From Bursaphelenchus xylophilus (taxonomy: Eukaryota > Nematoda > Chromadorea > Rhabditida > Aphelenchoididae), in assembly GCA_904066235.2 (NCBI GenBank), contig CAJFCV020000005.1, positions 3,467,501-3,531,500 of the forward strand: a stretch of 64,000 bases of DNA, read 5' to 3'. The notes under the pieces were generated by a model. That model saw nothing but the letters and a program-made list of their open reading frames with translations. It had not been told where the DNA came from and did no database searches. The translations under genes and the position numbers were made by a program. Below, piece after piece: positions 2,444-62,350 of this stretch (position 1 is the stretch's first letter; every line of letters starts with the position of its first letter).

Positions 2444-5400
2444 ATGAGTACGAAGAGGTACCCACAGAAGACCGAGCGTCTTCTGGAGTCGCTGGGAATC
2501 GTGTCTCCCTCAAGTTTACGCGACCGACTTCTCAATGCGCCCGATCTGAAGGAGGAGATCCGCAAATTTCAAGCCGAAAACCAAATTCCGGTAAGTACTA
2601 TGTCTGTTTACTGTGACGTCGAGTGCACTCTTGTTATTTGCAGTGAATAGGTTTTAATACGAATCCGTCTTCATGGCCGATTAGCTTATTTTCGCCGTTT
2701 CTCTCGCTTTACTCGGTAATTTTATACTATACGAAAAGCCTTTCAGGTCCCTTCGCTGAGGCCCATTCTGAACATTCTCGACCTACATGGCGTGCGGAGA
2801 AACGAATTGAACCAGGTGGTAAGTTTTTATTATATTATCCATTTTCAAGTTTAGGTATTAAAAGAATTGACCGGAAAATTGTTGGACAAAATCAAGGACT
2901 TGTCGCCGAAAAAGAATCCTAAAGATGCGAAGAAGCTGGAGGAGTTGCTGGATAAGATTTTCAGACTGTATCCGGTGGAGAGCATGCGGAAAATTGTCCT
3001 TGAGACGTTGAAAAGTGTTCCTCAACTTTCAAATAAGTGAGTTTTTTCTTCTTTTTTTTGAATTTTTTTGATGGGAACGGTGATAACAAGAACAATTTGA
3101 GCTGTAAATCTCGAAGTTGCCGAGTAGAAATTTCCAATTTTCTATTTTTGATATCATGGATAATCAAAATTCTTAAAAATTTTTGACTGAATCTTACCGA
3201 ATCCTCTTTTAGATATCTAAAAAAGATTGCTGATGACAAGCTTCTCTACAGCGAATGTGATGTCAGTGTAAAACAGCAGATTTGGGTTGTCAATGAGAAG
3301 TTATTCCATCAAGCAATCGAGCCGATTATTGATGAATACGTAGATGAAAAAGAGAAGATCCTGACTTTAACTGGAAGATCTCAGACCAATTTCTTTACTT
3401 CCGACACCACAAAGATCCGGCGACAATGGAAACAAGTGAAAGGTAAGTGGAAATTTACGAGTGCACTGTGCAGTCAAAAAAAATTTTTTTTATTGCACGG
3501 TGCAGTGGGAATTTCGGTAAATTTTTTGTCGAATTGAAAGAGGGTCGAATGAATTCTTTTGTTGCACAGTTCTGATAAATTTTGAGTTCTCCTGCACTGT
3601 ACAAAAAAAATTTTTTTGACCGCACCGTGCAGAAAAAAATTATGGTCTGTTTTGCACGGTGCAGTCGGATTTTTGAAATTTTTATTATGGAAATGGAAAG
3701 TTGAGGGCAAATACACATCATCTGTGGAAAAATTAAAAAAAAAAATTTACCCGTTCTGCATCTCCTAAATTTTTTTTTCAGATTTGATCCAAATGTCCGG
3801 CAGAAACCCCTCTCTGTACAAAGGAATCACTGATTTGGTGCAACTGCGATATTTGGAGACCGGCAGCTGTCATTATGCCTCATTGAGGTTGGAATTGGCC
3901 ATGGCTTTGCATGATTTGAACGTTGAATTTGCCACAAAAACGGATCCGATTCACGATTTTGCTTGGGTTTTGGATGTGGCCTTGAGGGATCGGCACATGG
4001 ACACCCAGCAGGTCAACAAGCTGAAGAATGTCATCGATAAAAAGAAGTTTTTGGAAGAGGTGGGTGGTATAATATAACGTGGATTTTGAATAAAAATTTA
4101 CTGCAACGATTGCGGAGCAGATCGTATTTTACATAGATATGAAAAAATTCATGATTTTTTGTGAATTTTGAGGCTCTCATTAACTTTTTTTTTGTTATAA
4201 ATCACCTTGTTTTACTAGTCGCGCAAAACGTCCTTGGAATTTGTCGCGGTCCCCAAATTCCGTCGCGCTCCGAAAATGTTGGTTTTGCACAGTGCAATTT
4301 CATAGTGCAAAAAAGCCTATGGTTTTGCACCGTGCAATTTCATAGACAAAAAAGCCTATGGTTTTGCACAGTGCAATTTCATAGTGCAAAAAAGCCTATG
4401 GTTTCGCACAGTGCAATTTCATAGTGTAAAAAAGCCTATGGTTTTGCACCGTGCAATTTCATAGACAAAAAAGCCTAGGATTTTGCACAGTGCAATTTCA
4501 TAGTGCAAAAAAGCCTATGGTTTTGCACAGTGCAATTTCATAGTGCAAAAAAGCCTATGGTTTTGCACAGTGCAGAGTCCTTGGAATTTTTCCCGATCCC
4601 CAAATTCCGTGCGCTCCGAAAAGTTGATTTGTCGCTGCGAAAAACGGGAATCGCGCGCGACGTAAGGCAAAAACAAACAAAATTGCACTGTGCAAAAGCA
4701 CTTTTGGGCCTGAAGCACGGTGCAAAATGTTTTTTCGAGCTCATGCACGGTGCGGAGTCACAAAAAATTCCAATGACTTTTTGCGCGGACTTTAGTGGGC
4801 ATTTTTTGATTGGAAAATTGAGTTTTGGCCCACATTTTTGCTTGAGGCTTCTACGAAATTTAATCTTGAAGCCTTATTTTGGTTTTAACAGTAGTTGTTT
4901 ACAAATATCTCACCTGATTTTAGATTTTGTTACCTAAAATAAGGTGTTTTTTCGGTTCGAACTGTCATTTCTTTGGCTAATGTCTATAATTTGTAAGAAT
5001 ATTATTTTTTTATGACTTTATTTTACCTCAAACCTCGTTTTCAGAACTTCAAAAACGTTGCTTTGGTCGCCGCCGACCCCCACGTCCTCCATTTGCTATG
5101 CTCCATGACCCTGAAAATTATTTTCGACAGCACAAAAACTTGTAATCAAATCCCCAGAGATCACACATTACTCCATTTGATCATCCGATTACTTTATTTT
5201 GGACTATATTCGAGGGTAAGCGACCTTTTTTGATTTTATTTTTTTATTTTTTTAGGAGATTATAAACGAGGAAAAGGAATTTCAAAGTGTAATTAATGCA
5301 GACTGTCTGGTCAAATTCCTCCCAGCCATGACTGAAGTGATCTTGAGGGATCAGGTTCGCATGGAATTGCAAAAAGCCAGCGGTAAGCTTGTTTATAGAC

Positions 5401-7637: not shown

Positions 7638-10600
7638 ATGTCAGCTACGCCCAGCTCCGACAAGGACTACAGTAAGGTAAGAGGGAATTGAGGGTTGGAA
7701 GAAATTGGTATTATTTTAAAATTTTTTATATTACACTAGATAAAGTTGGATAGTAGCTGTGAATTTTTGTTATGAAGATAATGTTTAGATCCTGGAAACC
7801 CTCCGTGAAGGCTTCGAGAGTGGCGCGAACGCCTCGTTGGAGAATCGCAAGGCCAATTTGACCGCACTGAAACATCTGATCGTGGAGAATGAAGACGCGA
7901 TTTGTGAAGCACTTTGGGCCGATTTGTATAAAGTAAGGTGTTTTTGAGCAGTTTTAGAGAGTATACTTGGATAAAACAGAAACATTTTTAATCCTTAAAA
8001 AGAGATTTCTGCCGAAAATTTAAGATTTTTTAACCGTGTCATCAATTTTGCCCTATTATTTGAAAAAAATTGAATATCTCAAAAATGCCTGCAGGGCATG
8101 ATCTGAAATTTTTAGTGAATAAAATGTGAAGCATTTAGAGGACTGCTGCAAAATTTGAAGAAAATCGACAGAGGCAATTTTGAGTTGTTGACCTCCGAAA
8201 ATCAATGTCTACTACAATATCGCAATTTTTTTGAATATCTCAAAATTGTCTGCAGGGCATGATCTGAAATTTTTAGTGAATAAAATATGAAGCATTTAGA
8301 GGACTGCTGCAAAATTTGAAGAAAATCGGCCGAATAAATTTTGAGTTGTTGACTTCCGAAAATCACTGTCTACTACAATATCGCAATTTTTTTGAATATC
8401 TCAAAATTGTCTGCAGGGCATGATCTGAAATTTTTAGTGAATAAAATATGAAGCATTTAGAGGACTGCTGCAAAATTTGAAGAAAATCGGCCGAATAAAT
8501 TTTGAGTTGTTGACTTCCGAAAATCACTGTCTACTACAATATCGCAATTTTTTTGAATATCTCAAAATTGTCTGCAGGGCATGATCTGAAATTTTTAGTG
8601 AATAAAATATGAAGCATTTAGAGGACTGCTGCAAAATTTGAAGAAAATCGGCCGAATAAATTTTGAGTTGTTGACTTCCGAAAATCACTGTCTACTACAA
8701 TATCGCAATTTTTTTGAATATCTCAAAAATGTCTACAGGGCATGATCTGAAATTTTTAGTGAATAAAATATGAAGCGTCCAGAGAACTGCTGCAAAATTT
8801 GAGGGAAATCGGTTGAAACATTTTTAAGTTGTTGACCTCCGAAAATCAATGTCTACTACAATATCCGAAACTTTTTTATAACCCCTCTAAGATTCCTCTC
8901 CTTTTCCAGAGTCAATTCGAATCGGTTGCCCACGAAACCAGCCACACTGTCAACGAGATCAACACCGCCATTTCGAATCTAAAGTGCTGGACTGCGCCGG
9001 AAAAAGTGACCCGATTCCTGCTCCAGGCCGCCGACGCCGCTTACATCCAACCCGAGCCCTTGGGCGTCGTCCTAATCATTGGAGCGTGGAATTTCCCGGT
9101 TCAGCTTCTCCTAGCACCAGTTGTTGGGGCTCTGGCCGCTGGAAATACGGTATTTTTGAAGCCCTCGGAGCTGGCTCCGGCCACGGAGAAATTGTTCTTG
9201 GAATTGTTTCCAAAATACATAAAAGAGAATGTCGTGAAGGTTGTCAAGGCCGATAAAGATGAGACTGGGTGAGTAAAATGGTTGTTTTTTATAGGGCGAA
9301 GAGCTTGAGACCTTATTTTAGAGTACTACGAGAAATTTCTAAAAAATGTGTCATCATGACACATTTTTGGAAAAATGAAAAATCGTTGTTTTTTGTGGTA
9401 AAAGGAATAGGAAAATGCAATGTGCGTTGAATCCGAAAATGTGTTTTGATGCTATAGACCTTATTTTAGAGTCTAACGAGAAATTTCTAAAAATGTGTCA
9501 TCATGACACATTTTTTGAAAGATGAAAAATCGGTGGTTTTTGTGGCAAAAGGGAATCGGAAAGTGCGTTTTGATGCTATAGACCTTATTTTAGAGTACTA
9601 CGAGAAATTTCTAAAAAATGTGTCATCATGACACATTTTTGGAAAAATGAAAAATTGGTGGTTTTTATGGTAAAGGGTTTAGGAAAATGTGTTTTGATGC
9701 TATAGACCTTATTTTAGAGTCTAACGAGAAATTTCTAAAAAATGTGTCATCATGACACATTTTTGGAAAAATGAAAAATTGGTGGTTTTTATGGTAAAGG
9801 GTTTAGGAAAATGTGTTTTGATGCTATAGACCTTATTTTAGAGTCTAACGAGAAATTTCTAAAAAATGTGTCATCATGACACATTTTTGGAAAAATTAAA
9901 AAATCGGTGGTTTTTGTGCTAAAGGGCTTGAGAAAATGGGTTTTAATGTTAGAAATTAAATTTTTCTTTTTTTTCAGCGAGATCCTGAAGCTCCGTTTCG
10001 ACCACATCTTCTTCACCGGCTCCACGAATGTCGGCAAAATTGTAATGAAAGCCGCGGCCGAAAACTTGACCCCAGTCACCCTGGAACTTGGCGGAAAAAG
10101 CCCGGTTATCATTGATTCGGATGTCGATCTCTACACTACGGCCAGGAGAACCATGTGGGGGAAACTGCTGAACGCCGGCCAAGTTTGTGTCGCTCCCGAC
10201 TACGCGATTATCATTGGAGATTCGGAAAGAAGAGACAAATTTGTGGAGGAATGCATCAAGAACGTCAAAGAGTTCTATGGGGAAAACGCCAAGGAAAGCG
10301 AACATTATGGAAGACTCGTCAATACGATCCAGTTCGAGTGAGTTTTTTGGAGTGACAAATGATTGGAGGTTTGGAAAAAAATTGATGTAATTTGATGGGT
10401 AAAGTAATATATTAGCTGAATGATATATTATTTTAGAGACAATTCCAGGGGCTTTTGAATGTAATATTAAATGGATTTTTGAACTGGGTATGGAGCTTTG
10501 AGTTTTCGGCATGTTAATTTAGACGTCAGATGAGTTTGATGTGTGGCACAAAAAAGGTTGCTGCTTGATGGGTAAAATAAGATGAAGGCTAAATGATATG

Positions 10601-12024: not shown

Positions 12025-12392
12025 AATACGATTTTTTACTGTCTAACGAAGCTGTATTTAAATTATTTTCGTCTCATCTTGTCCCAGACTTAATTACCAT
12101 CCCCGTTTTAACGATTTTTCTTCTTAATTACCCGTTAAATTAGGTATTTTATATTGTTTTAGCTAGCTCTACTAATATCCGAGGCCATATCTTTCCCCTC
12201 AAAAAAAACTAGTCCAAATATTGTCCGATTTGTATTATTCAAATAAATTCTTGTTCCGCTGAGCAAGTAGTCGTCTCCAGTAGTTTTTGTAATGTGATTA
12301 CGCAATAAAAGAAGATATAACAAAGGTCGTTAGAGTGTCTGCAAAGGAGTATATAAACCAAGATGAGCACATGAAGCCATCGACTGCCTGTC

Positions 12393-13585
12393 ATGTCTTC
12401 TCTGAAAATCATCTCTTTGGCCATTTTTTGCATCGGTTTTGGATCGGATTCAGGTAGAATGTTAAGGTTTTTGTGATGATTTTCTATGATTTTGGGAAAT
12501 TTAATTTACAGGGGAATTACTCTAAGTGCGACGCTCAAATTTTGATAAAATTTGGCACAAATTTAGAATAATTTTTTCGAAAGTATATGCGAGAATCCTA
12601 GCTCGCGCTTTGCAGAAACAACCGAGAGTTTTAGATCGAAAGTCGGCCAAAATTTAGGACTTTTTGCCGAATTTCGGCACGAAAAGTTTCATGCCTATTT
12701 CTGCCATAAATAATAATGTTCTTACAAAAAACCAAATTTTTCCGCACGGAACTGCCAAAGTTATGGCCAAAAAGCGCTTTTCTCTCTGCCCGCTCTCCAC
12801 GTTTAGCGTGCTCTCTCGGCGGCAAAAATCGTTCAATATCTCGGCGGCGCCCGCAAAGCGCGAGCAAAAACTTTCAGGAATTGATATTTAGTCCGTACCC
12901 GACGTGTGTGCAAAATTTAATGAAAATCTGAGCGTCGCACTTGGAGTACTTCCCCTGTTAATTTTGATGACTATACTATAAAAGAAGCTTGGTATCTTTT
13001 CAATCAAATTTTCTTTTGATTTTTGAAGTAAATTTAACCCTTTTTTTAGCCGTTTTCGGGTACGGATGGCATCCTCATCACGATGATCATCATCATGGAG
13101 ATCATCATGGGTTAGATCATCATGGCCTTGATCATGAGGGATATGGTCATCATGGTCTTGAACACTATGGAGATCATCATGGTCTGGAGCATGAAGGCTA
13201 TGGCCATCATGGTCTTGAACATCATGGCCTTGAGCATCATGGAGACCATCACGGATACGGTCATGGTATTGAACATCATGGCTTCGAACATGGACATCAT
13301 GGACTCGAACACTATGGCTTGGACCATCACGGAGAACATCATGGACTTGAACATGACGGATATGGTCATCATGGCTTGGAACATCATGGCTTAGAGCATC
13401 ATGGGGACCATCACGGATACGGTCATGGTCTAGAACATCACGGATTTGAACATGGACGTCATGGACTTGATCATCACGGATTTGAACATGGAGATCATCA
13501 TGGTCTTGAACATGGTCACCACGGATTCGAACATGGTCATCATGGCCTTGAACATGGCTTCGGACATCATGGAGATCATTTCTAA
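12393..13585 (+). CDS. Secreted histidine/glycine-rich repeat protein
   Basis: Exons 12393-12453 and 13050-13585 encode 198 aa. The first exon is almost exactly a signal peptide (hydrophobic IISLAIFCIGFG, then a small-residue cleavage region). The mature chain is built nearly entirely of His, Gly, Glu, Asp, Leu, Phe and Tyr in imperfect HHG-LEHHG and HHGYGHHG repeats, with no cysteine. Such His-rich chains usually bind Zn, Cu, Ni or heme; here that is inference from composition. No known family is recognised with confidence. It sits between ALDH copies 1 and 2 on the same strand. The repeat CAT/CATCATGG at DNA level keeps the antisense frame open, which should not be read as a second gene. 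The intron is almost filled by a hAT-like MITE. Confidence 0.8.
12509..12957. mobile_element. hAT-like MITE (family A, copy 1)
   Basis: The element runs from CAGGGGAATTAC to GTACTTCCCCTG with terminal inverted repeats of about 35 bp, both containing GCGACGCTCA or its complement. It is flanked by TTAATTTA on the left (12501-12508) and TTAATTTT on the right (12958-12965), an 8-bp target duplication with one mismatch, as hAT transposons make. It has no transposase and is therefore non-autonomous. Two further copies lie in intron 1 of ALDH copy 3. Confidence 0.85.
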
Positions 13586-21333: not shown

Positions 21334-24300
21334 ATGGCTACAGTCGATCCGGACGTTCTAACACTTCATAGATGTCCAATATGCCGAAGAAATTTAGTTG
21401 AGTTGTCGTTGGACTTGAGGCAGGATCATTTTAACCGTTGCAAAGACCCGATAAAGGTTTTCAAGAAGCTGGATACCAAATTGAGCAAGGTCGACGTGAA
21501 CTTTACCTGTCCAGTATGCGCAGTGGAACTTATTGTGGGCTCGGTAAGCTTTTTTTGTCGTTTTTGTTGGTTTAGGTATCAAGCATAATCTAATCTCTGC
21601 TGGGCTTTACTTTTTATAGTGGTGGTCGCTATAAAAAGTAATTTATTTGTGTTGAGGTGCTCTCTGTCACATAAGAAGAAAATGTAGCAGAATAAATCTG
21701 CTTTTATGCATCCATTTTCTCTATTGACATCCAACTTTTAGGAAAGATCGCGACATGTTCGAGATTGTGCCCAAAGAACCAACATAGAGCTCTACAAAAT
21801 GATGGAGAAGGTAGATTACGAAGTTAAACAAGCCAGAGCGAGAGAAAGGCTTCGTGAACGACAGTGTGTGTAAGTATTTTCTATCATCCATCTTATACAG
21901 GGTGTTTCAAGAAATTCCCCGGAAAGCAATCGTCGATTTCTCGGCGCTCAGCCACGATATCCAAAAAATTTTTTTTGCAGTAGAAAGAAGGTTATGGGCG
22001 GTTTTTTGCCTAAAAAGATTTTTTTCTACGCCGACGCGGAATGTAGTGTATTCGGCGAAGACTTTTGACCGCTTTTTTGGTCATCACATACATCTTAAAC
22101 GCTTTTTTGTGGTTTCTGATGGCTGAAATGCGGATAATTTACTGATTTTTGTGCTTATCAAGCGTTCGGCAAAGGTATGGCAGCCGCTCGCCATATCTTA
22201 ACTCAGATACGGACCAGAAATGGTCCAACACAATTTTTATTGTCTGGCAACTAGTTTCTGCGGGTATCGTATACCCTCCAAAATTTTGTGGTCAAGCCTT
22301 GGCAGATGTCTAGCCATCACGGAACCACTTGGTGCACCAGAAAACAACAAAAAAAAATTTGCTTAAATTTCTCTTTGCCCTGCTGTTTCAAACATTCGCG
22401 CAGTGGGCTCGACTTTATCGATATTGCAGCGACTGTATTGCACTGTGCAGTCGCTAAATGGGATCGCATAGCGTTATACCCTGCCTCCTGATCCATTGTG
22501 CAAAAAATCTGAAGACTTTCCGGATGCTGCAGTGTCACAGTAAAGCGTTTTAGATAAGTGTGATGGTCAAAAAAGCGGTCAAAAGTCTTCGCCGAATACA
22601 CTGCATTCCGCGTCGGCGAAGAAAAAAATCTTTTTAGGCAAAAAACCGCCCATAACCTTCTTTCTACTGCAAAAAAAATTTTTTGGATATCATGGCTGAG
22701 CGCCGAGAAATTGACGATTGCTTTCCGGGGAATTTCTTGAAACACCCTGTACTTTAGGCGTCCAACGAATTTTGCCGTTCCTGCGAAACGCCCACGTCCC
22801 AGCGTGGAAATTGCCGATCAAACAGATAGTATCGACCTTTGTGATGCTAGTTCTAGTCACGCTGAGATGAAAAGGTGAGGGAAATTGCTTTGTTTTGGAT
22901 GATGTTGTACTAGACTGCTTTGTTTATGAAAAATAATAAAAAATCTTTAATTTCAGTGAAGCTATAAGCAATATAACTGCAAAATCAAGAACCTCAAAGA
23001 CGATACGTCGCCCAGAACCTGTGCAGAGGGTTTGTCAATGTCTGGTTTTGGAGAAAATTCAAAAAAGATTTGTCGAAAAATTCGAAACCATTCAAATCCC
23101 AGAAAAGTCTCCGAAAACAAATGATCCTGCAGTCGAATCCATGGCACAAAAGGTATTTAGATTCCTTATAATGTATTCTTACTTTAGTTGAATCGTTTAG
23201 AAGCCTTGGCCAACTCATTTCGACGGGCTTTTCTCTCGGGCGACGTGCAAATTATCACAAAAAATGGAAATATTCGAGCGCATTCCTTCATTTTGACCTA
23301 CAGAAGCCATTTGAAACTGGAAGATGGAAGTGTGCAGATGAATGCAAGATTGTCGGATGTCGAGGTCTGGCTGAGGTATCTTTATTCCGCTCAAATCGAC
23401 TGGTCGAAGAGTCAAATTAAGGCTTTGATGGAAATTGCTGCCGAATATGGCCCTCCGGAACTTTTGCATCTCCTCCAAAATGGCCGTTATAACTCGGATA
23501 ACTTGGATAACAATTGTAGAACGAAAGTTGATCAAGGAATTCAATGCGGGACCAGTTATATTATCCATGAGAAGGTTGATGAAGCAGTCCAATGTGATGG
23601 ATATATTGCAAATTCGGACGTCTACGATGACTATTCAGATGGCCGAGAGTTCAGCGAGATCTTCAACAATGCGATTACGGAGGAAGAAGACGTGATGAAC
23701 TTGACTTTTCACGAAAAAAGTTTATTTTTTGAAGCCGAAGAGGCCTCCATGGACTCGACCGAAGAGCCCTATAAAACCCGATATTGTTGTCCAGAAGACA
23801 GAGATGCTAATAGTATGGAAAATGGCCAAGAAATTAGCGATCCACACGTCTATGCGGTCGAAAATTCGGTAGATGATTATATTGTTCATGTTGAGGAGGA
23901 AAAAAATGAAAGAAATGGTCATAAATCGAAGCGGAAAAGTGATTGCGGAGAATTTAATAGCTCAGCAGAGCAAGAGGCTCTTCTGGATGGAGTGGATCGG
24001 CAGAATTTGGGTTACTGTAACAAGGAAAATATCGAAAATCCAGGAAATCCTCGGGAAATTGGACCAAAATCGCCGGAATCTGTGGTTTTCGTCGAGGAAA
24101 GAAGCCATGACCTTGAATTTGATGTCAAACAAGAGCCAGTGGATTACTGTAACAATGAGGAGGTTGTAGAGCAAGGAAATGCAGGGGAATGTCCAGAAGA
24201 TGACTTGTTTTATGAGGAAATTCCTATGGAAGATATCAATTATGAAGAGTTTAATATGCAAAATCATGTGGGGAATGACAATTTTGAAGTCATCCAGGTA

Positions 24301-34431: not shown

Positions 34432-37400
34432 CTACTGTTGTTGTGAGGCAGTCGGGCTTGAATTTCCATCCTGTGACCCCCCACTTCCACCTGTCGATCC
34501 TGTGTTTGCACCGTGCGGATTTCCCAAATCTGCACTGTGCGCAGACCCTTCATTTCTGGGGTCGGTGGGGCTGGATTGGTGGCCAAGAGCACTCGAACTA
34601 CTGGCCGATTCCTGACGTGATATGTTCGGGGTTGAGGGGCTAGGGTCAGCCGGGGCATTTCCGTCGGCTTGGAGCTGTCTTCGATAATGCCAATAAACCA
34701 CGGCCAGCCAAATTGTTAGGGTAAAGAACAACGTCATCAAGTACAGATCCCATTGAGGACCCATAAGGCGCTCAATGAGGGGTGCTTTGCCTTCAGAGTC
34801 GAACAAAATCCCCTAAAAATCAATGTTTCTAAAAATAAATGTAAAATTTTATCTACTACAATATAAATTATTGCTCTAAAATATCAAAAATGAATCTCTA
34901 TGCAAACTTACGCCGGTAAAAAAGTCCGTAATGAAAAGGAATCTCAATTTGATCAGTGCCAAAGTGACTGGGACAATGGCGTCTGTTGAAGTTTCAGCGG
35001 CCAAATCATAAAATCTCTTGGCCAAATGGAGGTCCTGAAAGCAAAAAAATAAAAATAGAAGCAAAACCATCAAAGCTACTGAAAACTTTTTCTCTGAGCG
35101 AGTAAGTTCTCTTCTGAACATGTTTGAGTCAACTCTCTTCTTCATAAAAATTTGGGTCAAGTGTTCCCCTCAAATATATCAGTAGCCCAAAGCTATCCCT
35201 TCAAAGTGTACTCAGCTAAGGTCTTTTTTAAATTTCCGTTAAAAACCATTTTTTCAACAAAAAATTTTTTGAGTCAACTCTTTCCCTCGTGTCTCAAAAT
35301 GGGTCAACTCTTGCCCTCAAGCTGAAACTAATGTAATTTATTTCACTGAGCCTACAAAATTTCAAAAAATTTATGATCCATCACCCCATCTCTTACCCTG
35401 CTAACTCCAAGTCCATTTTCATGCATATAAGCCAAGTTGAACAAGGCTTGGGCGTTCTGATGCGAGGTTGCGGCGACCTTGTACTGATTCGCTGCGGCTG
35501 CGAGATCCACTGGAGTTCCGAGGCCGTAGAACAAGTAATCTCCGAGCTTTACTCTGGCGAATGCGTATTCCTGATTCGCCGACCTCAACCAGTATTGGTA
35601 GGCTCTTTGATAGGTCTGATTCGGTTTGAAAAGTTGTTGGCGCCCATCGGACTTGTCCATGAGAAAGGCGAAATTCGTTTGCGCCACTTCATAGCCCAAT
35701 TCTGCGAGGAAGAGATACCTACAACATTATTTTACACTGACTAAGACATCAAACTCAAGATTACCTTACACTAGACCCTTCAATAAAAATAATATCCAAA
35801 TTTCTATGCAAAACCTCCCCATTTATCCACCTACCGTATCGCAGCCTCATCCGTATGTCCCAACTGGAATTTAGCGAAGGCATCGACGAATCTTTCGGCC
35901 CATCTTCCTCTCTCCGCGACATTCTTCATCAGCTCCGTGGCCAAGGTGCAAGATCTTTGAGTTCCCGTTCCTGTGGCATGGATGTGGGCCAAATTATACA
36001 GCGCTAGAATGTGGCCGGATTGGGCTGCTAGTTGGAAGTATTTGATGGCTTGTTTGTAATTCTTTTCCACTCCGATTCCGTAAAAATACATTTGGCCAAG
36101 GTGAAGTTGGCCGTCCGAGGAGCCTTGTTCCGCAGCCATACTGAAAAACAGAGGCTATAATTCTTAATTTCACATAATTGCCAAGACATTAAAACTGTTT
36201 TTAATATCCATATTATCCATCACTTCATGGATAATATAGATAGCTCTAGGTCCCACAACGAAAACATGACAAGTCCCGAATCCTCTTTAAATTTACTTCC
36301 TTATCTTCTATAAGTCTCCAACACTTACCTGAACAATTTAAAGGCCAAGTTGCTATCCTGATCCACCCCATATCCGACTAGGAACATCAGACCAAGTCCA
36401 CTTTGAGCCATTGCATTTCCTTTGTCCGAGGCCTTCTTAAAGTACTCAAACGCCGTAGTATTTGACTGTGGGGTGTATGGAGTGCCTTCAAGGTACATAC
36501 GTCCCAGATATGCGTAGGCTGGGATATTCCCGGCTTGAGCAGCGACCTTGAAGTAGCGAGCCGCGGCGTCCAAATCCATGGGCACTCCCTTGCCACCAGT
36601 CAAGTAGAGTTGAGCCAGGGCAAGCTAAAAGATCATATTTCAGCTTTATTCAACTAAAATCAGAAAAAACCCGCAAAAATAATTCTTACAGTAGCTTGAA
36701 CATCTCCAGTTTCGGCCAGATAGCTATAATACATAAACAAGTTGTTGTCGAGCAAATTCCCCGAGCTGGAGCTGCCTTCGACTTCATCTGGGATTCGGAT
36801 TCGTTGGATTGAAGGGGATCCAGTGAGTTTTAGCTTGTCCGCAACTTTTTGGGCGACTCTTCGATACCAGTTTAGGGCAATATCACAATCGGCTTTCACG
36901 TTTACCCCAGAATGATAGCGATATCCCTGTAACAAATTGGTCAAGCAATCTCCATTTCGAGCGAAAATTCTCTAAACTTCAAGAAAATAATAGCAAAAAT
37001 CTTACCATAGCCATCTGAGCCAGAGGGTTACCTCCGAGAGCCGAAACCGTGTAATGCAGAAGCCCTTTGGCCGGATCGGGATTATCCAAGCCAAGTCCGG
37101 TTGAGTAAATAAATCCTAGACCCAAATGCGCATCTGGACTGCCATTTTCAGCCAGCCTCTCGAAGATATTTCGGGCTTCGTCAATACTCCATCGATGCTC
37201 TCCAAATAGGTAGGAAAATGCTGAAAATAAAGGTTTTTTTTCAAATATAACAAGAATCAGAAAGCAACTGTAAATGAAGATAACAGTGTATTCGTCCTTA
37301 CCCAAAATTTTCTGCGCGTCTGGATGCCCCATTTCCGCGGCCCTTTCCATCTCTTTATAGGCATTCTTCAGATCTGAAACATCAACTTGAGCCCATCGCT

Positions 37401-38674: not shown

Positions 38675-41600
38675 ATGGCACGCGGAAGTGCGGAAAAAGG
38701 AAGAAAAGTAGGCTTGGGATTACAATCATCTTGATGGACAATGGAATCGCCTTCTCATGGGTACTGTAATTTTAAATTTTTAGAGTCGAACTACGATTGG
38801 AACGAGGAAAGCCGAGACCCGAGGGCGTGGAGTGGCCCGGCGGAAGTACACGGAAGGCGCGAATAATCGCTGCTCGGTGGAGAAGCAGACCACCGCCAAC
38901 GAAGCCCCGAGGGTCGCCATCGCAGCAAAGTTCGTCCATAAAGGGTTACCCAAAGACAGCGGCAATTCTGTAAGTTTGCGTGGACTACACATAGCCTGTG
39001 TTGTCTATGGACTGTGTACACCATAGGCTGGTTGTGAGATATTAACCAAAACAGGAAGGGAGTTTCGAGTGACCTACTCTGTATAGTGTTGTAGTAATAA
39101 GGCGATACTAGCCTTCCGGAAAGTTGACGGACTGATATATCCAAAAATTTTATGGAACTGGAACGATTGGGGAAAAAGACGATTGGTGAAACCGAAAAGT
39201 ATGATTTTTCTTCGATTCAAGTGTCGAAATTAGGATAATCGAGGGTGCTGATTTCGAAAATGACATTCATTTTTTTTGATACTTACTTTTTTCTTTAAGC
39301 AGTACTGTAAGGTAGTGATCTTTTGATTTTTTTTTCATGAATACTCGATTTGGGGGTTTCGATGGTGCTGGTTTCAAATCAGAAAAAATGAATGTCATTT
39401 TTGAAATCAACACCATCGAAAACCCCCAAATCGAGTACTAGTCCTTCCGTAAAGTCGCTGGAATGATTTCGGCGACGCGCACTGTGCAAGAAAACTCAGG
39501 GTGCGAGCGACGTCCCAAAAAGCTTATTGCACTGTGCAAAAAGCCAAAAATTGCACAGTGCAAAGTGAACTTTCGTTTTCGCGGAGTGCATGTCGCCGAA
39601 AACATTCCAGCGACTTTACGGAAGGACTAGTACTAGTCCTTCCGGAAAGTCGCCGGACGGAAATCGGCGACATGCACTCTGCGAAAACGAAAGTTCACTT
39701 TGCACCGTGCAATTTTTGGGTTTTTGCACTGTGCAATAGGCTTTTTCGAGCTGTCGCTCGCACCCTGAGTTTTTTCTCACAGTGCATGTCGCCGATTTCC
39801 GTCCGGCGACTTTCCGGACGGACTAGTAGCTCTATCGGTCTGTCGGGAAAAAAACGGCGGATCGTCGCGCCTCGGAGTCAGTCGCTCATCATCGCTTTGC
39901 GACTGCAAGCCGCGGCTTGGGATTTGGTGCGCGATGGCGGCGAGGCGAGACATTTTGGTGCGACGATCCGCCGTTATTTTCCCGACAGACTGATAAATTT
40001 GCACCAAATTTACGATTAGTCAAAATCTGAGCGTCCAATTTTACCCCCTAATTACAGTCTTTGTACTAGTCCTTCCGGAAAGTCGCCGGGCGGAAATCGG
40101 CGACATGCACTCTGCGAAATCGAAAGTTCACTTTGCACTGTGCAATTTTTGGCTTTTTGCACTGTGCAATAAGCTTTTTCGAGCTGTCGCTCGCACCCTG
40201 AGTTTTTTCCCACAGTGCATGTCGCCGATTTCCGTCCGGCGACTTTCCGGAAGGACTAGTAAAAGCTCAAGCTGGAAAGCTTAAGTCCGTTCGTAAAGTC
40301 GCTGGAATGTTTTTGGCGACATGCACTCCGCGAAAACGAAAGTTCATTTTGCACTGTGCAATTTTTGGCTTTTTGCACAGTGCAATAGGCTTTTTCGAGC
40401 TGTCGCCCGCACCCTGAGTTTTCTTGCACAGTGCGCGTCGCCGAAATCATTCCAGCGACTTTACGAACGGACTAGTATTTACGAAAAAAATTCAAAAAAT
40501 TACTACTTTACAGTACTACTTAAGGAAAAAAGTAAACATCAAAAAAAATGAATGTCATTTTCGAAATCAGCACCCTCGATTATCCTAATTTCGACACTTG
40601 CATCGAAGAAAAATAATAATTTTCTGTTTCCTCAATCGTACTTTTCCCCAATCATCCAACTGAAAGTCGCCGGAATGATTTTTGGCGCTTGCACTGTGCG
40701 AAAAAAGTCAGAGTGCGAGCGACAGCCGACAAAAGCCTATTGCACGGTGCAAAAACCCAAAAATTGCACAGTGCAAAAAAAAGTTTTGTTTTCGCACAGT
40801 GCGTTCTTTAATTTCAGGAACATTCGAAGCCGGGAAATTCTAAACAGGCAGCCTGTAAGCTGTGGTTTGACCAGATTTACGATTTGGGATTACCGAAGCT
40901 TCGCAAAGAGTTTGTTCAAAAAATCAAACAATGTAATCCCGATGGTGCTCACGAAGCCTGCATGGCCGATGAGAACTTCAGTAAGAACCGATACGACGAT
41001 GTTTTTCTGTTGGACAAGACCCGGATCAAAGTCAATATTAATCCTGACAAAGGTAACCAGAAATTTTTTTTATTTTGTTGTTTTATCATTAATACATCGC
41101 ACATTTTCAGACGATTACATCCACGCCAGCGCCGTCGAAGTCCACCCCGAATTGACGTACATCTGTGCCCAAGGTCCCATGGATAACACGGTCGCGCAGT
41201 TCTGGCTGATGTGCATCCAAGAAGACGTCCGTGTCATCCTCCAGTTGTGTCAGAACACCGAAGATGGAAAGGAGAAGTGCTCGGAGTACATGACCGGAGG
41301 CAAATCGGACTGGGTGACCTATGGACCGGTCCAGGTCAAGCAGGTGGACTACCAGAAGAATGTGGCCGGCACCAAGAAGGTGAACAAGACCAAAATACAA
41401 GTCAAGTTCAACGACAAGGTCCATTCGTGCACCCATTTGTTGTATGCGGGATGGCCGGATCATGGGGTGCCGGAGAGTGTGTCCACTTGTCGAGAAGTCA
41501 GGAACTTGGTCCACAAGTATTATGAGAAGAAACCGATCGTCATCCATTGTTCGGCAGGCGTTGGTAAGGGCTTTAACGAAAAAGCGTTAACTTTTTATTA

Positions 41601-42825
41601 GCATTTTCACAAAGTGTCTGGACATTTGTCGCGGCGCGCACTGTGCACAAAAGCCTGCGATTTTTTGCACCGTGCACTCACTTTTTTTTTGGTTTTGCAC
41701 TGTGCATTTGAAATATCGCTGCGACGTAAGCTTTTCTCAACTGCGCCGCCGCGATTTGGCTCAAAAATGTGCCTGGACATGTTTTCACTTTCGCACAGTG
41801 CATCTTGAATTTTTGTCGCCAAGGCACTGGGGATTTTTGCCTTTGCGCACCGTGCAAACCCAAAAAATGCCGATTGCACTGTGCACATTTCTGTGAAAAA
41901 CCGCAGCGGCGAAGTTGAGAAAAGCTTACGCAAAGTTCCAGGACATTTGTCGCGGCACGCACTGTGCACAAAAGCCTGCGATTTTTTGCACCGTGCACTC
42001 ACCTTTCTTTTTGGTTTTGCACTGTGCATTTGAAATATCGCTGCGACGTAAGCTTTTCTCAACTGCGCCGCCGCGATTTGGCTCAAAAATGTGCACAGTG
42101 CAATCGGCTTTTTTGAGGTTTGCACGGTGCGCAAAGGCAAAAATCCACAGTGCGTTGGCGACAAAAGTTCAAGATGCACTGTGCGAAAGCGAAAAGATGT
42201 CCAGGCACTTTGTGAAAATGCTAATGATTAAAGAATACGATGAATTTGTAATCTTATTTATATTTCGATGTTTATAGGTAGGACTGGAACTTTTGTTGCG
42301 ATAGAGATGGTGTGTCACAAACTGATGCAGGAAGAGAACGCCAACTTTACGATGTTGGAGCTCGTGAAGAACCTCAGAGAACAAAGAATGCACGCCGTCC
42401 AAAACGATCAGGTATTTTTGGCTTCTTTTACTGAATACTAGTCGCGGAAAAAAGTCCTGGGAATTTTCGGCGACTCTGCACTGTGCACGACCCCGAAAAG
42501 TGCTTTTGCACAGTGCAATTTTGTTGATTTTGCCTTATTGTCGCGCGCGATTCCCGCGACAAATCAACTTTTCGGAGCGCGACGGAGTTTGGGGGCCGCG
42601 AGAAATTCCCAGGACTTTTTTCCGCGACTAGTACCATTTTTAATTTCATCGTTTGTTACGCTCTATTTGCAGCAATATTGCTTCATCATCCGCTGTGTGA
42701 TCGAGATTCTGGTGGCAGAGGACTGTTTGCCGCGCAATCCCCGTGTCATACAGTTCATCCAGGACTTTGAGGAGATGGTTGAACGGAAGAAGAAACAACG
42801 GGCCGCCAGAGTCGAGAAGGATTGA
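38675..42825 (+). CDS. Receptor-independent protein tyrosine phosphatase, nematode type
   Basis: Exons 38675-38707, 38784-38969, 40818-41052, 41111-41563, 42278-42411 and 42673-42825 give 397 aa. All classical PTP signatures are intact: the pTyr loop KNRYDD, the WPD loop GWPDHGVP with acid Asp268, the P-loop HCSAGVGRTG with Cys298 and Arg304, and the Q-loop after QMHAVQNDQQ. So it should be an active tyrosine phosphatase. The N-terminal 70 residues are basic and low complexity, and no membrane segment or SH2 domain is present; this resembles the expanded nematode single-domain PTPs, many of them sperm-expressed. The introns at 38970-40817, 41564-42277 and 42412-42672 are packed with GCACNGTGC elements, yet every splice junction keeps frame. 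Confidence 0.9.
39145..40665. mobile_element. Nested MITE complex in phosphatase intron 2
   Basis: An outer element, also present at the ends of the giant repeat in SLX4 (words near 25470 and 27740), starts near 39155 and ends near 40660. It contains the AGTACTG-type MITE, which is itself interrupted at the word GAGTACTAGTCC by a cluster of about 195-bp elements. These lie at about 39440-39633, 39634-39828, 40065-40260 and 40288-40477. Each begins ACTAGTCCTTCCGGAAAGTC or a close variant and ends with its complement. Each carries two to four GCACNGTGC palindromes and several AGTGCATGTCGCCGA words. Between the second and third copy lies an unrelated block (39830-40060). Confidence 0.85.
40670..40805. 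repeat. GCACNGTGC half element next to phosphatase exon 3
   Basis: A truncated relative of the 195-bp elements: it opens AAAGTCGCCGGAATG and contains palindromes near 40690, 40742, 40766 and 40795, but the right terminus is missing. It stops just before the acceptor of exon 3 at 40817. Confidence 0.7.
41598..42224. mobile_element. MITE with GCACNGTGC payload, phosphatase intron 4
   Basis: The 627-bp element starts TTAGCATTTTCACAAAGTG and ends CACTTTGTGAAAATGCTAA, then repeats GTCTGGACAT / ATGTCCAGGC inside the termini. About twelve GCACNGTGC palindromes lie in the interior. The interior contains a duplicated half (about 41630-41770 and 41945-42085), suggesting a tandem or fold-back amplification. 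Confidence 0.88.
42438..42633. mobile_element. MITE with GCACNGTGC payload, phosphatase intron 5
   Basis: A 196-bp element with ends ACTAGTCGCGGAAAAAAGTCC and its near-complement, containing two GCACNGTGC palindromes (near 42478 and 42507) and the segment TCGCGCGCGATTCCCGCGA. The right half is related to the segment bracketing the array in NELF-B intron 5. Confidence 0.85.
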
Positions 42826-42944: not shown

Positions 42945-43237
42945 TTAGCATTTTCACAAAGTGCCTGGGCATGTTTTCGCTTTCGCACAGTGCATCTGGA
43001 ACCTTTTTCGCCAACGCACTGTGGATTTTCGCCTTTACGCACCGTGCAAACCTCAAAAACGCCCATTGCACCGTGCACATTTTTGATCAAAATCGCAGCG
43101 GCGCAGTTGAGAAAAGCTTACGTCGCAGCGATGTTTCAAATGCACAGTGCAAACTCAAAAAGAGGTGAGTGCACGGTGCAAAAAATTGGGGTTGAAAATT
43201 TGGGGTCAAATGTCCAGGCACTTTGTGAAAATGCTAA
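42945..43237. mobile_element. MITE with GCACNGTGC payload, downstream of phosphatase
   Basis: A 293-bp copy of the family at 41598-42224 with the same terminus TTAGCATTTTCACAAAGTGCC and its complement, and five palindromes inside. It lies between the stop codon of the phosphatase and the stop codon of the reductase, the two genes being convergent. Confidence 0.87.
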
Positions 43238-49540: not shown

Positions 49541-52500
49541 TTACTGGAAGAATTCAATCTTCCCCATGATTCGAAGCCGGCAGATACTGCAATGATCCAT
49601 GGCGTCAGCACAACCCTTGCAGCAAGTGAAGTGAAGACAGGGCATGAAGATTACTTCTCTCTGGAAAAAATAACATTTTGATGACATACTATGTTTCAGA
49701 TCATTATAACTTTTTACTGACATATCTTACTGTAACAAAACTTTTAGACAATGTAGTAAACTTACTCTAGAATCCATGCAGACCCCGCAGACGGGTCCTT
49801 GAGTTTGTCTTTGCTCCAATTCTCGGACTTCTTCACTTAGTCTGTCTACTTCGGAGCTTAGGCGAGTGACCTCGGAATTGGACTCTTGGCTGAGCTGATG
49901 GATCTGACGATCTTTCGATTTGATCTTAAAACTAGTTGTATTCAGTTTACAGAGGTTTTGATTAGATATTTTACTCAAGATGAGCTTTTTTAGCGACCAA
50001 ATGGCTATACAAAGTCTTTAAAAAGTTTTCGGGAAAAGTCATCAAAAAGATTTTTTTTTTCAAAAACTTTGCCAATAATGTCATTTCAAAGTGTCTTTAA
50101 AAGCGTCTAAATACTACAACATTCCCTTAAAAGACATTTAATAACTACCACATAAACTTACCATGTCTCTAAGATCATTGATCTCCCTGACCGCACGATG
50201 CGACCGATCATTCTCCTTGACCAATCTGGCGATTTCGTCATTCAGACTATTCCGAACCTGCAATCATTTCCCGTTATTCGCGAATATCGTCAGAATGCTC
50301 CAAAAAATATGTAAATCGCCCCCACCTCGTCGGCTTTTCTCATCTCGGCGTCGTGACGTCGCTGCAACGCCTCGTAATCCCTTTGTTGGCGCACGATGTC
50401 CGCTTCTCGGAGTTGAATGTCTTTCAGCTGGAAATGTTGGAATGAAAGGTAAAATACAGTGTAATCTTTTTAGATTTACATTGTTAATAGAATTTAGAGG
50501 CTTCATGATTGCACAGTGCACAATTCTAACGTTTTCGAGCGGTCCAAAAAGGATTGTCAACTGCACCGTGCGGAAAAGTTAGTTCGGCTGCACAGTGCAA
50601 ATTGAAAAAAGAAAAGAATGTGCACAATTAGAAAGTTTTCAAGCGTTTTAAAAAAAATGTGGACTGCACTGTGCGAAAAAAGTTCATTTGGTTGCACAGT
50701 GCGAAAAAACTATTTTTCTGTCTGCACTGTGCAAATTCAAAAAATTGATGTTTGCACAATAAGAATAAAAATTTTTTGATTGCACAGTGCACAACTAGGA
50801 AGTTAGAGCGGTCCAAAAATCCAAAATTTCCGGCTGCACGGCGCGGAAAAAAGTTCGTTCGGTTGCACTGTGCAAATTCAAAAAAATTGATGATTTCACA
50901 GTAAGAACCGAGAGATTTTTTGATTTCACGGTGCGACATCAGCATCAAAGATTTGACGGCTGACGTGAGAAATGAAAAATTCAAAAATTAGCGAATCGCA
51001 CAGTGCTATGCACAGTGCAAGACAAACAAAATCTCTAACCGCACAGTGCGAAACAAAAAAATTCCAACTGCACCGTGCGAAATAAAAAATTTTCCAACCG
51101 CACCGTGCGAAGTCGAGAAATTTCCAACCGCACTGTGCGAAACAAAAAATTTTCAAACTGCACAGTGCGAAACAAAAAATTTTCCAAGCGCACTACGCAA
51201 AATCGAGAAATTATTGATTACACAATATACAAAAATAAAGTTTTTGCCTATAAGAAGCAGAAAATCAGGCCACATACATTATCCTGAATTCTCCTATTCG
51301 CATTCTCCAATCGCTTTTCGATCTCCCCGTAATTTTTGAACAGCACTTCTTGTTGTCGAATCTTCTCATCCCTCAATTTCAGAAGATCCCTGAGGCTTTC
51401 GTTTTCGTTCAGACTGTTCTCCAGCTTCCTCTAGAACAATATTATACTGTATTTTTTCCAACTTACTCTAAGTTCATGATTTATTTGCTGAAATTCCTCG
51501 AAATGTCGGCGATTTTCGTTTTCAAAGGTGTCAATCAGCCGTTGAATGGAGCTTTTGACCTGAACCTTGCTCGAATGATGACTATAATCGGGCAGAGAGT
51601 AGTCCAGACTTCGATGCAAAGATGTGGCCGACGGAAATCGTCGGAGATTCTTCAAGGATTGGGATCGGTGGACCTCTCGGGTTGGGTCGGGGCCATGAGA
51701 TTCGTAATCTCGAAGCGTCCGAATGATCGAGGAACCCTCTCCGAAAATCTTTCCACGCCCTTGACACTTGATTCGTGTCCTTTCGGACCTAAAAGATCAG
51801 AATATTAGACTTCAAATATCAAAGAATAGTCATCAATATCTAAAACAACATACCAAGGTAAGGTGGCAGCGCCATCAATATCTTTTTCGTGGCATCCACC
51901 GATCGCTGATGAGCTTGGGAACCGAGAGATACTCGATCGAAGACTTGGAGAGTTGAAATTTGTGGGAGAACCGCGCTTCTCCTTCTGGATGTAACTCAAG
52001 GCATCGATCATCGAACTGATCGATTCAAACGGCTCAAATGGCTGAAATGAAAATTAAATTTGTGAGTGAAACTCTGAAGGCATTAAGAATGCTTTTGAAC
52101 GAAAATCTGGCATTTTTTTGGAATTTTTAGGAACCTATTTTTGATCTGCACCGTGCAGTTTTTTTGGGTGCACTGTGCATTTTAAAGAGGTCGAAAAATT
52201 TTGCTAAAATCGCAATAGTGGTTAAAAATAATATTAAATTTAAACTTAGAGGCTCGCTAAATACAATTTTGTCACCTATAATATCTATGTCCTTACTCGC
52301 ACAGGGCGAAAAGTAATCAAATTTTAATTATTAAAATTTCACAGTACAAGTAAAAAAATTTGCAAAAAAACATTTATAAAAACTGTTAAACGAGTCACAT
52401 TGAAATTTCCGAAGCCCTACCTTATCACAACTATCCTTATTAGTCCATTCCAGCGCTGCCCAGACCTCCGTATCACTGTATCCCATTTCCTTGGCATTCC

Positions 52501-59451: not shown

Positions 59452-60846
59452 TTATAGACCCGACAGTACCTGTAAAAAGTTCAGCAGCCCCAATTGCATC
59501 TGGATCAAGCTCGGGTTCGGCTGAATTCCACTGAATAATGGATGAATTTTCGGGAATTGGAATGTGTTCGGTAGTTGAAGACCGGAGTCTCGTCGGAACA
59601 GCGGAAGCCGCGAGTGCAAAGCCGAGCCCGAATGGAGTTTTGGATTAGGATTGGCCGAGTGCCGGTTCCTGAAAAAGAAAGAAATAAGTTTTTTGGGAAA
59701 AGGGGTGATTTGGGTGTAAATTAAGGTCATAAAACTTGTCAAAGGCGAAGGAAATTGGTTTATTTCCGTTACAGTTGCTGAAAATAGTATTCTAAACGTG
59801 ATTTAGGAGGGCTGACGTGATTGGGGTTTGGGTTAAAAAAAGAAAATTTGGGCTAAAACAAGGTCATTTTTGATGATTGCTCAAAATTTCTCTCAAAAAT
59901 CTTGTGGAAAAAGCCCTTGGAAATGTTGATTATGCTCTTAAGAACCTCTACTAACCAAAGACGCCGTATTTTACCTGCTCCTTCGCGACGAAAACATCAT
60001 TTCGCATCCCAGCACGGTGCACTTGTGCATCTCCCGCAAATGCACCGCACTGTTGTGGATCTTCAGCGCGCCCTTATCGCAGAACGTCTTCAAACACTTG
60101 ACGCATTGGACTCGACGTTTGGCCGAACGCACGGAATTCGGCGACTGAAAAAAAGATAAAATTTTGGTCCCAAATCCTCACATTTTTATGTTTTTCGTTT
60201 GGTTGTGGAGATTTTTGCGGGCTCATGATGCTGCTGGAAGGTTGATCTTGTTGTTGGAAAAGCTTCTGCATAAGTTCGAGACTTGGACCGGGCTGGAAAA
60301 TTAGGAATTTAGGGGAAAATCTGGTAGGTTGTTCAGAAAGTTCGTTCGTTTTTTCATTGCTTTGTTTTACAAGGATTGTTTGTCGTTTGGCAAATGGAAT
60401 ATATGTATTTGATGCAGCTTTTTCTCCTCTACAAAACTGGCTGTATCAAATAAATATATACCCTTCGCCAAACAACAAACAATCCTTGTAAAGCAAAGCA
60501 ATGAAAAACGAACGAACTTTCAGGACGACCTAATAGGTGATATCGAAAAAAGTTTGATTTTTCTTTGATTTTGAAAAGAAAAGTTGTGAATTATCTTTTG
60601 AAAAGATGTGAAATTAAATTTTACAACATTTAAAATACGAGACGCATTCATTTTATATGTTTTTTTGACATCATTTTGCAAAAATTGCCAAAAAATAGGT
60701 AAAAATGGATGACAGAAAATATAAATGTTTTGTATTGTAAACTACATATTAATTACAACCCTATGAACTCATCTACTCACCTGTTCTCTCTCCTCGTCCT
60801 TGCTGACCAGGTAATCTACCGTAAACATGCCTTTCTTCGACTCCAT
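59452..60846 (-). CDS. bnc-1: Basonuclin / Disconnected-type C2H2 zinc-finger transcription factor
   Basis: Exons 60846-60781, 60292-60182, 60144-59975 and 59668-59470 join in frame; reading on gives a stop at 59452 (187 aa), while splicing to 59357-59304 would give 199 aa. The paired fingers are diagnostic: [20 protein letters not shown] followed by [15 protein letters not shown] and then [19 protein letters not shown], which matches Drosophila disco and vertebrate basonuclin almost residue by residue. These are nuclear DNA-binding proteins; C. elegans BNC-1 sets motor-neuron identity. Disco and basonuclin usually have further fingers or a longer tail, so this gene is compact or its model is incomplete at either end. 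The long non-coding upstream tract fits a developmentally regulated gene. Confidence 0.82.
60327..60530. mobile_element. mariner-like MITE with ~65-bp inverted repeats
   Basis: A 204-bp element starts GGTTGTTCAGAAAGTTCG and ends CGAACTTTCAGGACGACC, flanked by TA (60325-60326 and 60531-60532). The inverted repeats extend about 65 bp and contain ACAAGGATTGTTTG. The start GGTTGTTCAGAAAGT is typical of mariner-group termini. It lies in intron 1 of the basonuclin-like gene. Confidence 0.88.
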
Positions 60847-62350
60847 TCGCCTACCGTAACCCGGGAGAAGAGAGCGGCCGAGAGGACCGGATGGCTTGTC
60901 GCGTCGAATGCACTCTGCCCTCGGGGCATGAGGGCCTTTTTAGGGTTGACGTGTCCCACGGTCTCGCCCCACGGCCCTCGGGGGCCTCAGCCGAAAAATA
61001 GCGTATTGGCGCACAGTGCGGTAAAATTGGGCGGAGAAATGGGTCGACCGCACAGTGCAATGGGTTGAGGGGTCGGCGAAACGGGCGAGAAATGGACTGT
61101 GCAATCGACTGAAAGAGAAGAAATGACAAAAATGGGTAGTAAATGCACTGTAAATATAAGTTGGTTAGAGAAAAGGTGACTGCACAGTGCAGTCACAAGT
61201 TTTAGACCAAAATTTGTGACTGCACGGTGCAATTTTTTGTCAAGCCGAAAAATTGCGAGGAATTGCACAGTGCGAAAAATACAAGTGTCAAAAAACTTGC
61301 CAAATGCACTGTGCGCTCGAAAAAATCAGCTTCAAAGCGATCGCACTGTGCATTCATCAAATGAAGCTGATTTGAGTACTGCACTGTGCAAAAATTTGAA
61401 AAAGTCGAGGTATGATTAGTAAACGTATGATGTGTAAAAATCAAGTGTATACTGACTGCATCGTGCTCTCAACAAATAAAAAAAACTAGTTTTATGATTG
61501 CACTGTGCAATAAACTTTATTGCAAAAGTTTGTCAAAAAACTGCACCGTGCGGTAGAAACTCGTGATCAATCTGCACTGTGCGGTCGAAAATTCCGAAAT
61601 TTTGTGAGGATTTTTTGCACAGTGCAATTGTCAATTTTCAATATAAGGTATGTTCCGCAATGCGCTAAAAATTATAAAGTTTTTCGATGAAGAATTTTTA
61701 TTGCACTGTGCAGATAATAAAAATGCTTTTTTTGCCCGCAGCGTGCAGTAATTTCAAAAAATTTTTCCAAAATTTTATTTCAAATTCCCAACCTGTTGCA
61801 GAGCACAAAAAAATAATTTTGCCTTCGAAGAGACGTCAGAGAAATTTGCCAACTTTTAGAGAGCACAGTGCATGAAATTACCCGCTCTTTTCTCGCTTTT
61901 CTTTTGCTTCCAACTCCGCCCTCAGGCAGTTCGCGGCCCATTTATGGCCAATCACGGGGTGCGGGCCGTATTTTATGGTAATGGAGTGCGGCAAATCGGT
62001 GGCCATGACATCTTCCCATCGGGCCGGCCTAGTCGTTTTTTCCCCCCTTCTCGAGGGCGCCAAAGGTCGTTGGGGGGAGGCGAAAGGAGGGCGATGACAA
62101 ATGACATCTCCGGCCCTCCACATTTCCTTTTCGTCACATTTTCGCGATCCCCGTTTACATCCATTTATTTTATTGGAAAAACAAACCAAAGACGGGCTCC
62201 TCGGGCAAAAAAAAATGAAGAAGCGACGGTAATCGAAAAGACAGCTGGATCCGCGAGGAATGGGACGGCGGATTTCGGGGGATTCAGAGCGATTGACAAA
62301 TTTGGATGGAGATTTTTGTTGGATTTGTGGGCAGGAAGGTGACATTTTCT
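60847..62350. other. Basonuclin upstream tract with GC-rich islands and GCACNGTGC array
   Basis: About 60850-61010 and 61870-62340 are markedly GC-rich compared with the rest and carry no codon-like frame I trust; they may be 5' UTR or promoter islands. Between them (about 61012-61870) lie some fourteen GCACNGTGC palindromes or one-off variants, spaced 20-60 bp apart in AT-rich sequence. Confidence 0.6.
61012..61870. repeat. GCACNGTGC array upstream of basonuclin-like gene
   Basis: Palindromes near 61014, 61051, 61182, 61223, 61264, 61306, 61344, 61380, 61500, 61542, 61571, 61618 and 61702, with a final GCACAGTGC near 61864. Spacers share little sequence. I do not see matching terminal inverted repeats, so this array differs from the MITE-borne arrays in the phosphatase gene. 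Confidence 0.85.

What the first reader, a model, noticed from the sequence alone, without database searches (positions are those of the whole stretch)
3458..61870. About 80 copies of the palindrome GCACNGTGC arranged in arrays
The eight fixed bases should occur about once in 64 kb by chance, and less in AT-rich DNA. By eye I count around 80 exact copies, most extended to TTGCACNGTGCAA. The centre base varies (A, T, C or G), whereas the two four-base arms are kept. Conservation of the dyad but not of the centre or spacers points to selection for a symmetric protein-binding site or a hairpin, not simple sequence drift. Copies are confined to introns and spacers of at least five gene loci, in clusters of 2-16 with 20-60 bp spacing.
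Basis: seen in the sequence. Interest (0 to 1): 0.9.

Follow-up and report, generated by a model that had tools for sequence, protein, structure and literature searches.

The report
Forty thousand palindromic sites in nematode
A worm genome carries about 40,000 copies of one 11-letter mirror-image DNA word, arranged in arrays inside jumping elements, satellites and other stretches, where the word is kept while its surroundings change, which points to an unidentified protein that binds it.

Summary
The window holds 83 exact GCACNGTGC (shuffles: mean 0.24). The genome, whose scaffold lengths match Bursaphelenchus xylophilus Ka4C1 v5, holds 41,616 against 178 for the pattern read backwards. The fuller word is YGCACNGTGCR (39,685 of 41,616); TTGCACNGTGCAA is a minority (21 of 83). 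44 of 83 copies lie in three miniature inverted-repeat (MITE-like) families, 39 outside them, mostly in two irregular arrays. In two MITE families and one tandem array the arms are 6-10 times less substituted than spacers, while the centre base drifts. In family B (42 copies) arms have 0 changes on internal branches but 21 on terminal ones, so much of the constraint acts on lineages that multiply; constraint on copies in place is unsettled. Compensated arm changes are not enriched, against a hairpin. GCGACA is enriched beside it. Best reading: a binding site for a dimeric protein, used as a shared cis-signal by many repeats; comparable in kind to CENP-B-box satellites and the HIM-17 MITEs. The protein and its function are unknown.

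The parts
3463..3662 (.). Four palindromes in an intron (donor GT near 3443, acceptor AG near 3780) beside a COBRA1-domain exon; the first and third sit in a 29-nt inverted pair
4215..4795 (+). Family C-like inverted-repeat element with 11 palindromes, 8 of them in a 40-bp tandem array (4280-4574)
22440..22448 (.). Single palindrome lying between two 216-bp inverted arms (21896-22111 and 22536-22751, 94% alike)
34508..34540 (.). Pair of palindromes inside an open minus-strand frame (34432-34812) of unknown status
39438..39630 (+). Family A element, about 193 bp between TA dinucleotides, 3 palindromes
39633..39826 (-). Family A element, 2 palindromes
40066..40259 (-). Family A element, 2 palindromes
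40284..40475 (-). Family A element, 3 palindromes
40662..40802 (+). Partial family A element, 4 palindromes
41598..42224 (+). Family B element(s), two joined or nested, 12 palindromes, in a tyrosine-phosphatase intron
42438..42631 (+). Family C element, 2 palindromes, in the next intron of the same gene
42945..43237 (-). Family B element, 5 palindromes, downstream of the phosphatase stop codon
50511..51168 (.). Array D: 15 exact palindromes and 2 with one mismatch; diffuse 68-82% relatives elsewhere, no full-length copy
52148..52178 (.). Pair of palindromes 22 bp apart
60012..60020 (.). Single palindrome
61011..61871 (.). Array E: 14 exact palindromes and 3 with one mismatch in nearly single-copy sequence

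Best explanation
YGCACNGTGCR is an 11-bp two-fold symmetric binding site for a sequence-specific, probably dimeric protein. Arrays of it, together with a second word (GCGACA), are a shared cis-signal of many non-autonomous repeats in this nematode: MITE-like elements set between TA dinucleotides, tandem repeats and irregular arrays. Repeats with intact sites multiply better by transposition or tandem expansion, so the arms are kept in multiplying lineages while centre and spacers drift. Shown: the excess, the strict geometry, the arm constraint, the lack of covariation, the sharing by different repeats, the neighbouring word. Inferred: that a protein binds, that it is a dimer, that binding helps the repeats multiply. 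Open: whether the protein is a transposition protein or a host factor.
For: 41,616 copies against 178. 39,685 of 41,616 are YGCACNGTGCR; control 44 of 178. Spacing of exactly one base between half-sites. Substitutions, family A (40 copies): arms 6 of 960 cells, spacers 315 of 6431, centre 11 of 120; family B (22 copies): arms 7 of 1054, spacers 348 of 5077, centre 10 of 132. Variants shared by two or more copies: arms 0.2% and 0%, spacers 4.3% and 5.1%. Tree partition, internal branches: A arms 1 change in 24 columns, spacers 26 in 78; B (42 copies) arms 0 in 48, spacers 67 in 155. Terminal: A 4 and 36; B 21 and 216; terminal-versus-internal contrast p = 0.0018 for B. Tandem array in L022 (8 units): arms 5 of 248, spacers 77 of 646, centre 9 of 31, p = 4.5e-7. 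Clusters of 3 or more outside families A-C: 193 exact, 12 one-mismatch, control 0 and 0. GCGACA within 60 bp: 80 against 5.5 expected (copies of one family counted apart); seen at MITE ends and in arrays outside them. No covariation.
Against: No binding protein was identified. No autonomous partner was found: 0 of 6 mariner loci and 0 of 2 DDE_3 loci hold the word, 1 DDE_1 locus holds one near its edge; only 6 of 88 mariner and 2 of 8 DDE_3 matches were looked at. Arrays D and E show no bracketing terminal repeats among the longest inverted pairs listed, and E has few and short relatives, which an element-only account does not predict. The terminal-versus-internal contrast is not significant in family A (p = 0.40). 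Constraint in place is not excluded: singletons arms 23 of 2961, spacers 118 of 9456 (ratio 0.62, p = 0.036), and in close B pairs (<3%) arms 1 of 288 against spacers 18 of 900.
Confidence: 0.55

Rival explanations
1. Host-maintained sites: the arrays recruit a host chromatin, meiotic or regulatory protein, each site is under weak selection in place, and transposable elements merely carry and spread it.
For: Array E is nearly single-copy yet keeps 14 exact sites and 3 with one mismatch. Singletons in arms are below spacers (ratio 0.62, p = 0.036) and close B pairs differ more in spacers. Arrays like D are in chromosome arms: 0 of 40 hand-picked places in the central third.
Against: Genome-wide, one-mismatch copies exceed the reversed control by 10,594 (18,654 against 8,060), about 3% decay per arm base, so many sites do decay. 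Internal branches are much cleaner than terminal ones in family B. Arms of nematode chromosomes are rich in repeats of all kinds (recalled).
Confidence: 0.25
2. Transposon-only signal: the palindrome is the subterminal or internal binding site of one transposition protein, and the arrays outside the MITEs are relics or tandem expansions of such elements.
For: 44 of 83 window copies are in MITE-like families with 814-1166 first-look candidates genome-wide for two of them; GCGAC lies at the inner ends of the terminal repeats and in other arrays; internal-branch constraint.
Against: No terminal repeats found around D and E; no transposase linked to the word; E lacks close relatives.
Confidence: 0.35
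3. Hairpin selection: the DNA or RNA stem-loop is what is kept.
For: The word is palindromic in 41,616 places.
Against: Palindrome-preserving double changes 1 against 2.4 expected; 32 single-arm changes. No covariation of the flanks and no dyad beyond position 5. Other G+C-rich palindromes are not enriched.
Confidence: 0.04
4. Neutral hitchhiking: an ancestral repeat held the word and copying spread it, without selection.
For: Many copies are in repeat families.
Against: Arms are 6-10 times less substituted than spacers of the same copies, and the centre base is not.
Confidence: 0.05

Closest known systems
CENP-B box-like motif in Meloidogyne satellite DNAs (PMC9673304, passages seen; PMC3694981, abstract seen)
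   Same: A short word kept in otherwise divergent nematode repeats, present on all chromosomes, proposed as a protein-binding site with a link to transposition.
   Different: That word is 17 bp, not palindromic, and was counted in 11 satellites; here it is an 11-bp palindrome with a free centre, about 40,000 copies, also in MITEs and irregular arrays. No sequence similarity to the quoted box.
HIM-17 m1m2 motif pair in CERP2/CELE2 MITEs of Caenorhabditis (PMC9757741, abstract and first part of Results seen)
   Same: Two short words carried by MITEs and bound by a DNA-binding protein related to a transposase.
   Different: There one pair per inverted repeat acts in germline promoters; here long arrays of one palindrome. 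The m1 and m2 letters are only in a figure logo, so they could not be compared.
TNPA sites of plant En/Spm (CACTA) transposons (recalled; some searches failed)
   Same: Many copies of a short site near the ends of a transposon.
   Different: A single family with its own protein; here several families and arrays outside them, and no protein known.
Meiotic pairing-centre motifs of C. elegans (recalled; listing seen)
   Same: Thousands of copies of a short word in introns and spacers, bound by a zinc-finger protein.
   Different: Those are chromosome-specific and concentrated near one end; here all six chromosomes and both arms.

Membership tests
MITE (families A, B; C in part) | Short element with terminal inverted repeats | tested here: met
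   A about 193 bp, B about 293 bp, C 194 bp with matching inverted ends
MITE (families A, B; C in part) | High copy number | tested here: met
   1166 and 814 first-look candidates for A and B, of which 40 each were scored; C not tested
MITE (families A, B; C in part) | Target-site duplication | tested here: inconclusive
   TA on both sides in most of the 24 printed copy ends; no empty site compared
MITE (families A, B; C in part) | Related autonomous transposon | tested here: inconclusive
   6 mariner loci and 1 DDE_1 locus gave no BLAST match to A-C; 2 DDE_3 loci were checked only for the word and for their inverted repeats; most matches not examined
CENP-B box | 17-bp consensus YTTCGTTGGAARCGGGA | tested here: not met
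   Read against the consensus quoted in PMC9673304: no correspondence
CENP-B box | Same word kept in divergent satellites | tested here: met
   Kept in the L022 array and in a 40-bp tandem array in the window
CENP-B box | Bound by a CENP-B-like protein | not testable with these tools
   Needs binding data
HIM-17 m1m2 MITEs | m1 and m2 sequence | not testable with these tools
   Letters are in a figure that is not held
HIM-17 m1m2 MITEs | Bound by a THAP-domain factor; germline promoter activity | not tested
   No expression or binding data here; THAP genes were not searched
Pairing-centre motif | Confined to one end of one chromosome (recalled) | tested here: not met
   Listed places of families A, B and D-like arrays are on all six chromosomes and in both arms
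Selected hairpin (REP-like) | Compensatory changes keep the stem | tested here: not met
   1 seen, 2.4 expected
En/Spm-type subterminal sites | Sites near both ends, bound by the element's own protein (recalled) | tested here: inconclusive
   Sites fill the interior of small elements; no protein known

The most novel reading that the evidence does not exclude
About 40,000 sites form a genome-wide landing system for one unidentified DNA-binding protein with a chromosome-scale role (for instance pairing, holocentric chromatin or control of repeats in chromosome arms), which unrelated repeats have repeatedly taken up and kept.
Probability: 0.25. Interest if true: 0.9.

Novelty: new variant of a known kind. 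Interest (0 to 1): 0.72.

Why it matters
Few short words are known to be kept this exactly, this often, in otherwise unrelated repeats of one genome. The fixed geometry predicts one dimeric DNA-binding protein, which a single pull-down could find. It would show whether repeats multiply by borrowing a host protein's site, and give a nematode outside Caenorhabditis a case comparable to HIM-17 and CENP-B.

Tried and rejected
Chance or composition: rejected. Hairpin: rejected as the selected feature. Helical phasing of sites: 129 spacings outside families A-C, median 31 bp, 10th to 90th percentile 25-59, smallest 12, no preferred phase at 10.5 bp. Rfam: no match in the window or in L009 and L010 at gathering scores. 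A first impression, from 264 kb, that one-mismatch copies are almost absent did not hold genome-wide (18,654 against 8,060 for the control); the excess depends on the control, since 12 palindromes had 32-72 one-mismatch copies against 64 for the word. Link to mariner, DDE_1 or DDE_3 transposases: none found in the few loci examined. A protein search meant to name the species gave one weak hit; the species came from assembly statistics. Literature: one search found 188 papers with one of five spellings, 20 listed, none of those about nematodes by title; two searches listed 2 and 11 papers; the other 168 were not seen, so absence from print is not shown.

Full report
What was checked. The window holds 83 exact GCACNGTGC between 3463 and 61871; shuffles that keep dinucleotides give 0.24 on average. 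The window is C5:3467501-3531500 of a 78,253,340-base genome with six chromosomes and two small contigs. The published B. xylophilus Ka4C1 v5 assembly has a longest scaffold of 15,101 kb, N50 12,794 kb and N90 12,140 kb (PMC7561696, whole text read); contigs C1, C4 and C2 are 15,101,617, 12,794,883 and 12,140,115 bases. I take the genome to be that assembly.

The word. Genome-wide there are 41,616 exact copies against 178 for the pattern read backwards, 8,775 of TTGCACNGTGCAA against 0, and 39,685 of YGCACNGTGCR against 44. In 124 sites with distinct flanks, kept from 303 pooled, position -5 is T 66% and C 29%, the centre is A or T in 76%, and nothing is informative beyond about position 7. 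The two half-sites must be one base apart.

Where it sits. Of 83 window copies 44 are in families A, B and C. A is about 193 bp, B about 293 bp, C about 194 bp, with inverted ends set between TA dinucleotides. BLAST of A and B against the genome gave 1166 and 814 first-look candidates, 40 scored each. The other 39 are in array D (15), array E (14), an intron cluster (4), two pairs and two single sites. Array D has diffuse 68-82% relatives; E has only short ones (the tool warns that it skips common words). In a larger sample, partly chosen because it held the word, 128 of 353 copies are in A/B/C-like sequence and 225 are not. Elsewhere the word occurs in a 147-bp higher-order array and once per 172-174 bp in another stretch of L022.

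Chromosome position. Five 10-kb stretches near chromosome middles and the first 10 kb of all six chromosomes hold none. Of listed places in the central third: D-like arrays 0 of 40 (picked by hand), B 4 of 39 (p = 0.002), A 8 of 39 (p = 0.12), a 17-base form 2 of 18 (p = 0.047).

Constraint. In family A (40 copies: 36 of 44 full-length rows plus four window copies) arms are substituted in 6 of 960 cells and spacers in 315 of 6431; in family B (22 copies) 7 of 1054 and 348 of 5077; centres 11 of 120 and 10 of 132. These copies are the best-scoring ones, so they lean to young ones. Split by a tree, internal branches carry 1 arm change (A, 24 columns) and 0 (B with 42 copies, 48 columns) against 26 in 78 and 67 in 155 spacer columns; terminal branches 4 and 21 against 36 and 216; the contrast is significant for B (p = 0.0018) and not for A (p = 0.40). 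Singletons give arms 23 of 2961 and spacers 118 of 9456 (p = 0.036). So arms are nearly frozen in lineages that multiply and partly relaxed in single copies; whether they are fully relaxed is unsettled, since close B pairs (<3%) still show 1 of 288 against 18 of 900. Tests treat cells as independent.

A tandem array outside the MITE families (L022, 8 of 9 pieces used; a fifth site fell among the spacer columns because of gaps) shows 5 of 248 arm changes, 77 of 646 spacer changes and 9 of 31 centre changes.

Decay. One-mismatch copies number 18,654 against 8,060 for the control, an excess of 10,594, or about 3% per arm base.

Second word. GCGACA lies within 60 bp of the palindrome 80 times against 5.5 expected; copies of one family are counted apart, and of 168 GCGAC near sites 74 have distinct flanks. 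In family B the GCGAC columns have 0 internal changes in 15 columns, in A 4 in 25.

Mechanism. The strict one-base gap, the free centre, independent Y/R flanks and absent compensated variants fit a dimeric protein that reads YGCAC on each strand. Because different repeats keep the same word while their other sequence turns over, the protein is likely to help them multiply or persist. Whether it is a transposition protein or a host factor cannot be told here.

Known kinds. CENP-B box-like words in Meloidogyne satellites (PMC9673304, passages; PMC3694981, abstract) and HIM-17 m1m2 MITEs (PMC9757741, abstract and part of Results) are the nearest. It works like these; membership in either was not shown (see the membership table).

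Noticed in passing
   Followed up: partly
L010:1111-2445: A 445-aa frame with Tc5 transposase domains on contig C7, which begins with telomere repeats.
   Followed up: partly
8070-8877: Five copies of a 161-bp tandem repeat at 95% identity, reminiscent of the 160-bp satellite recalled for B. xylophilus.
   Followed up: no
31382-31994: A 145-bp tandem repeat of about four copies.
   Followed up: no
8817-20043: Three tandem aldehyde-dehydrogenase-like genes with none of the palindromes (Pfam match for one exon).
   Followed up: no
25039-28193: Two long inverted copies, 89-96% alike, about 3 kb in all.
   Followed up: no
L001-L005 (C1:97762-109468): Palindromes recur about every 2.36 kb, a long-period tandem repeat.
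   Followed up: no
12501-12962 and 17398-18189: A dispersed repeat of about 460 bp with copies in most of the sampled stretches that gave matches, without the palindrome.
   Followed up: no
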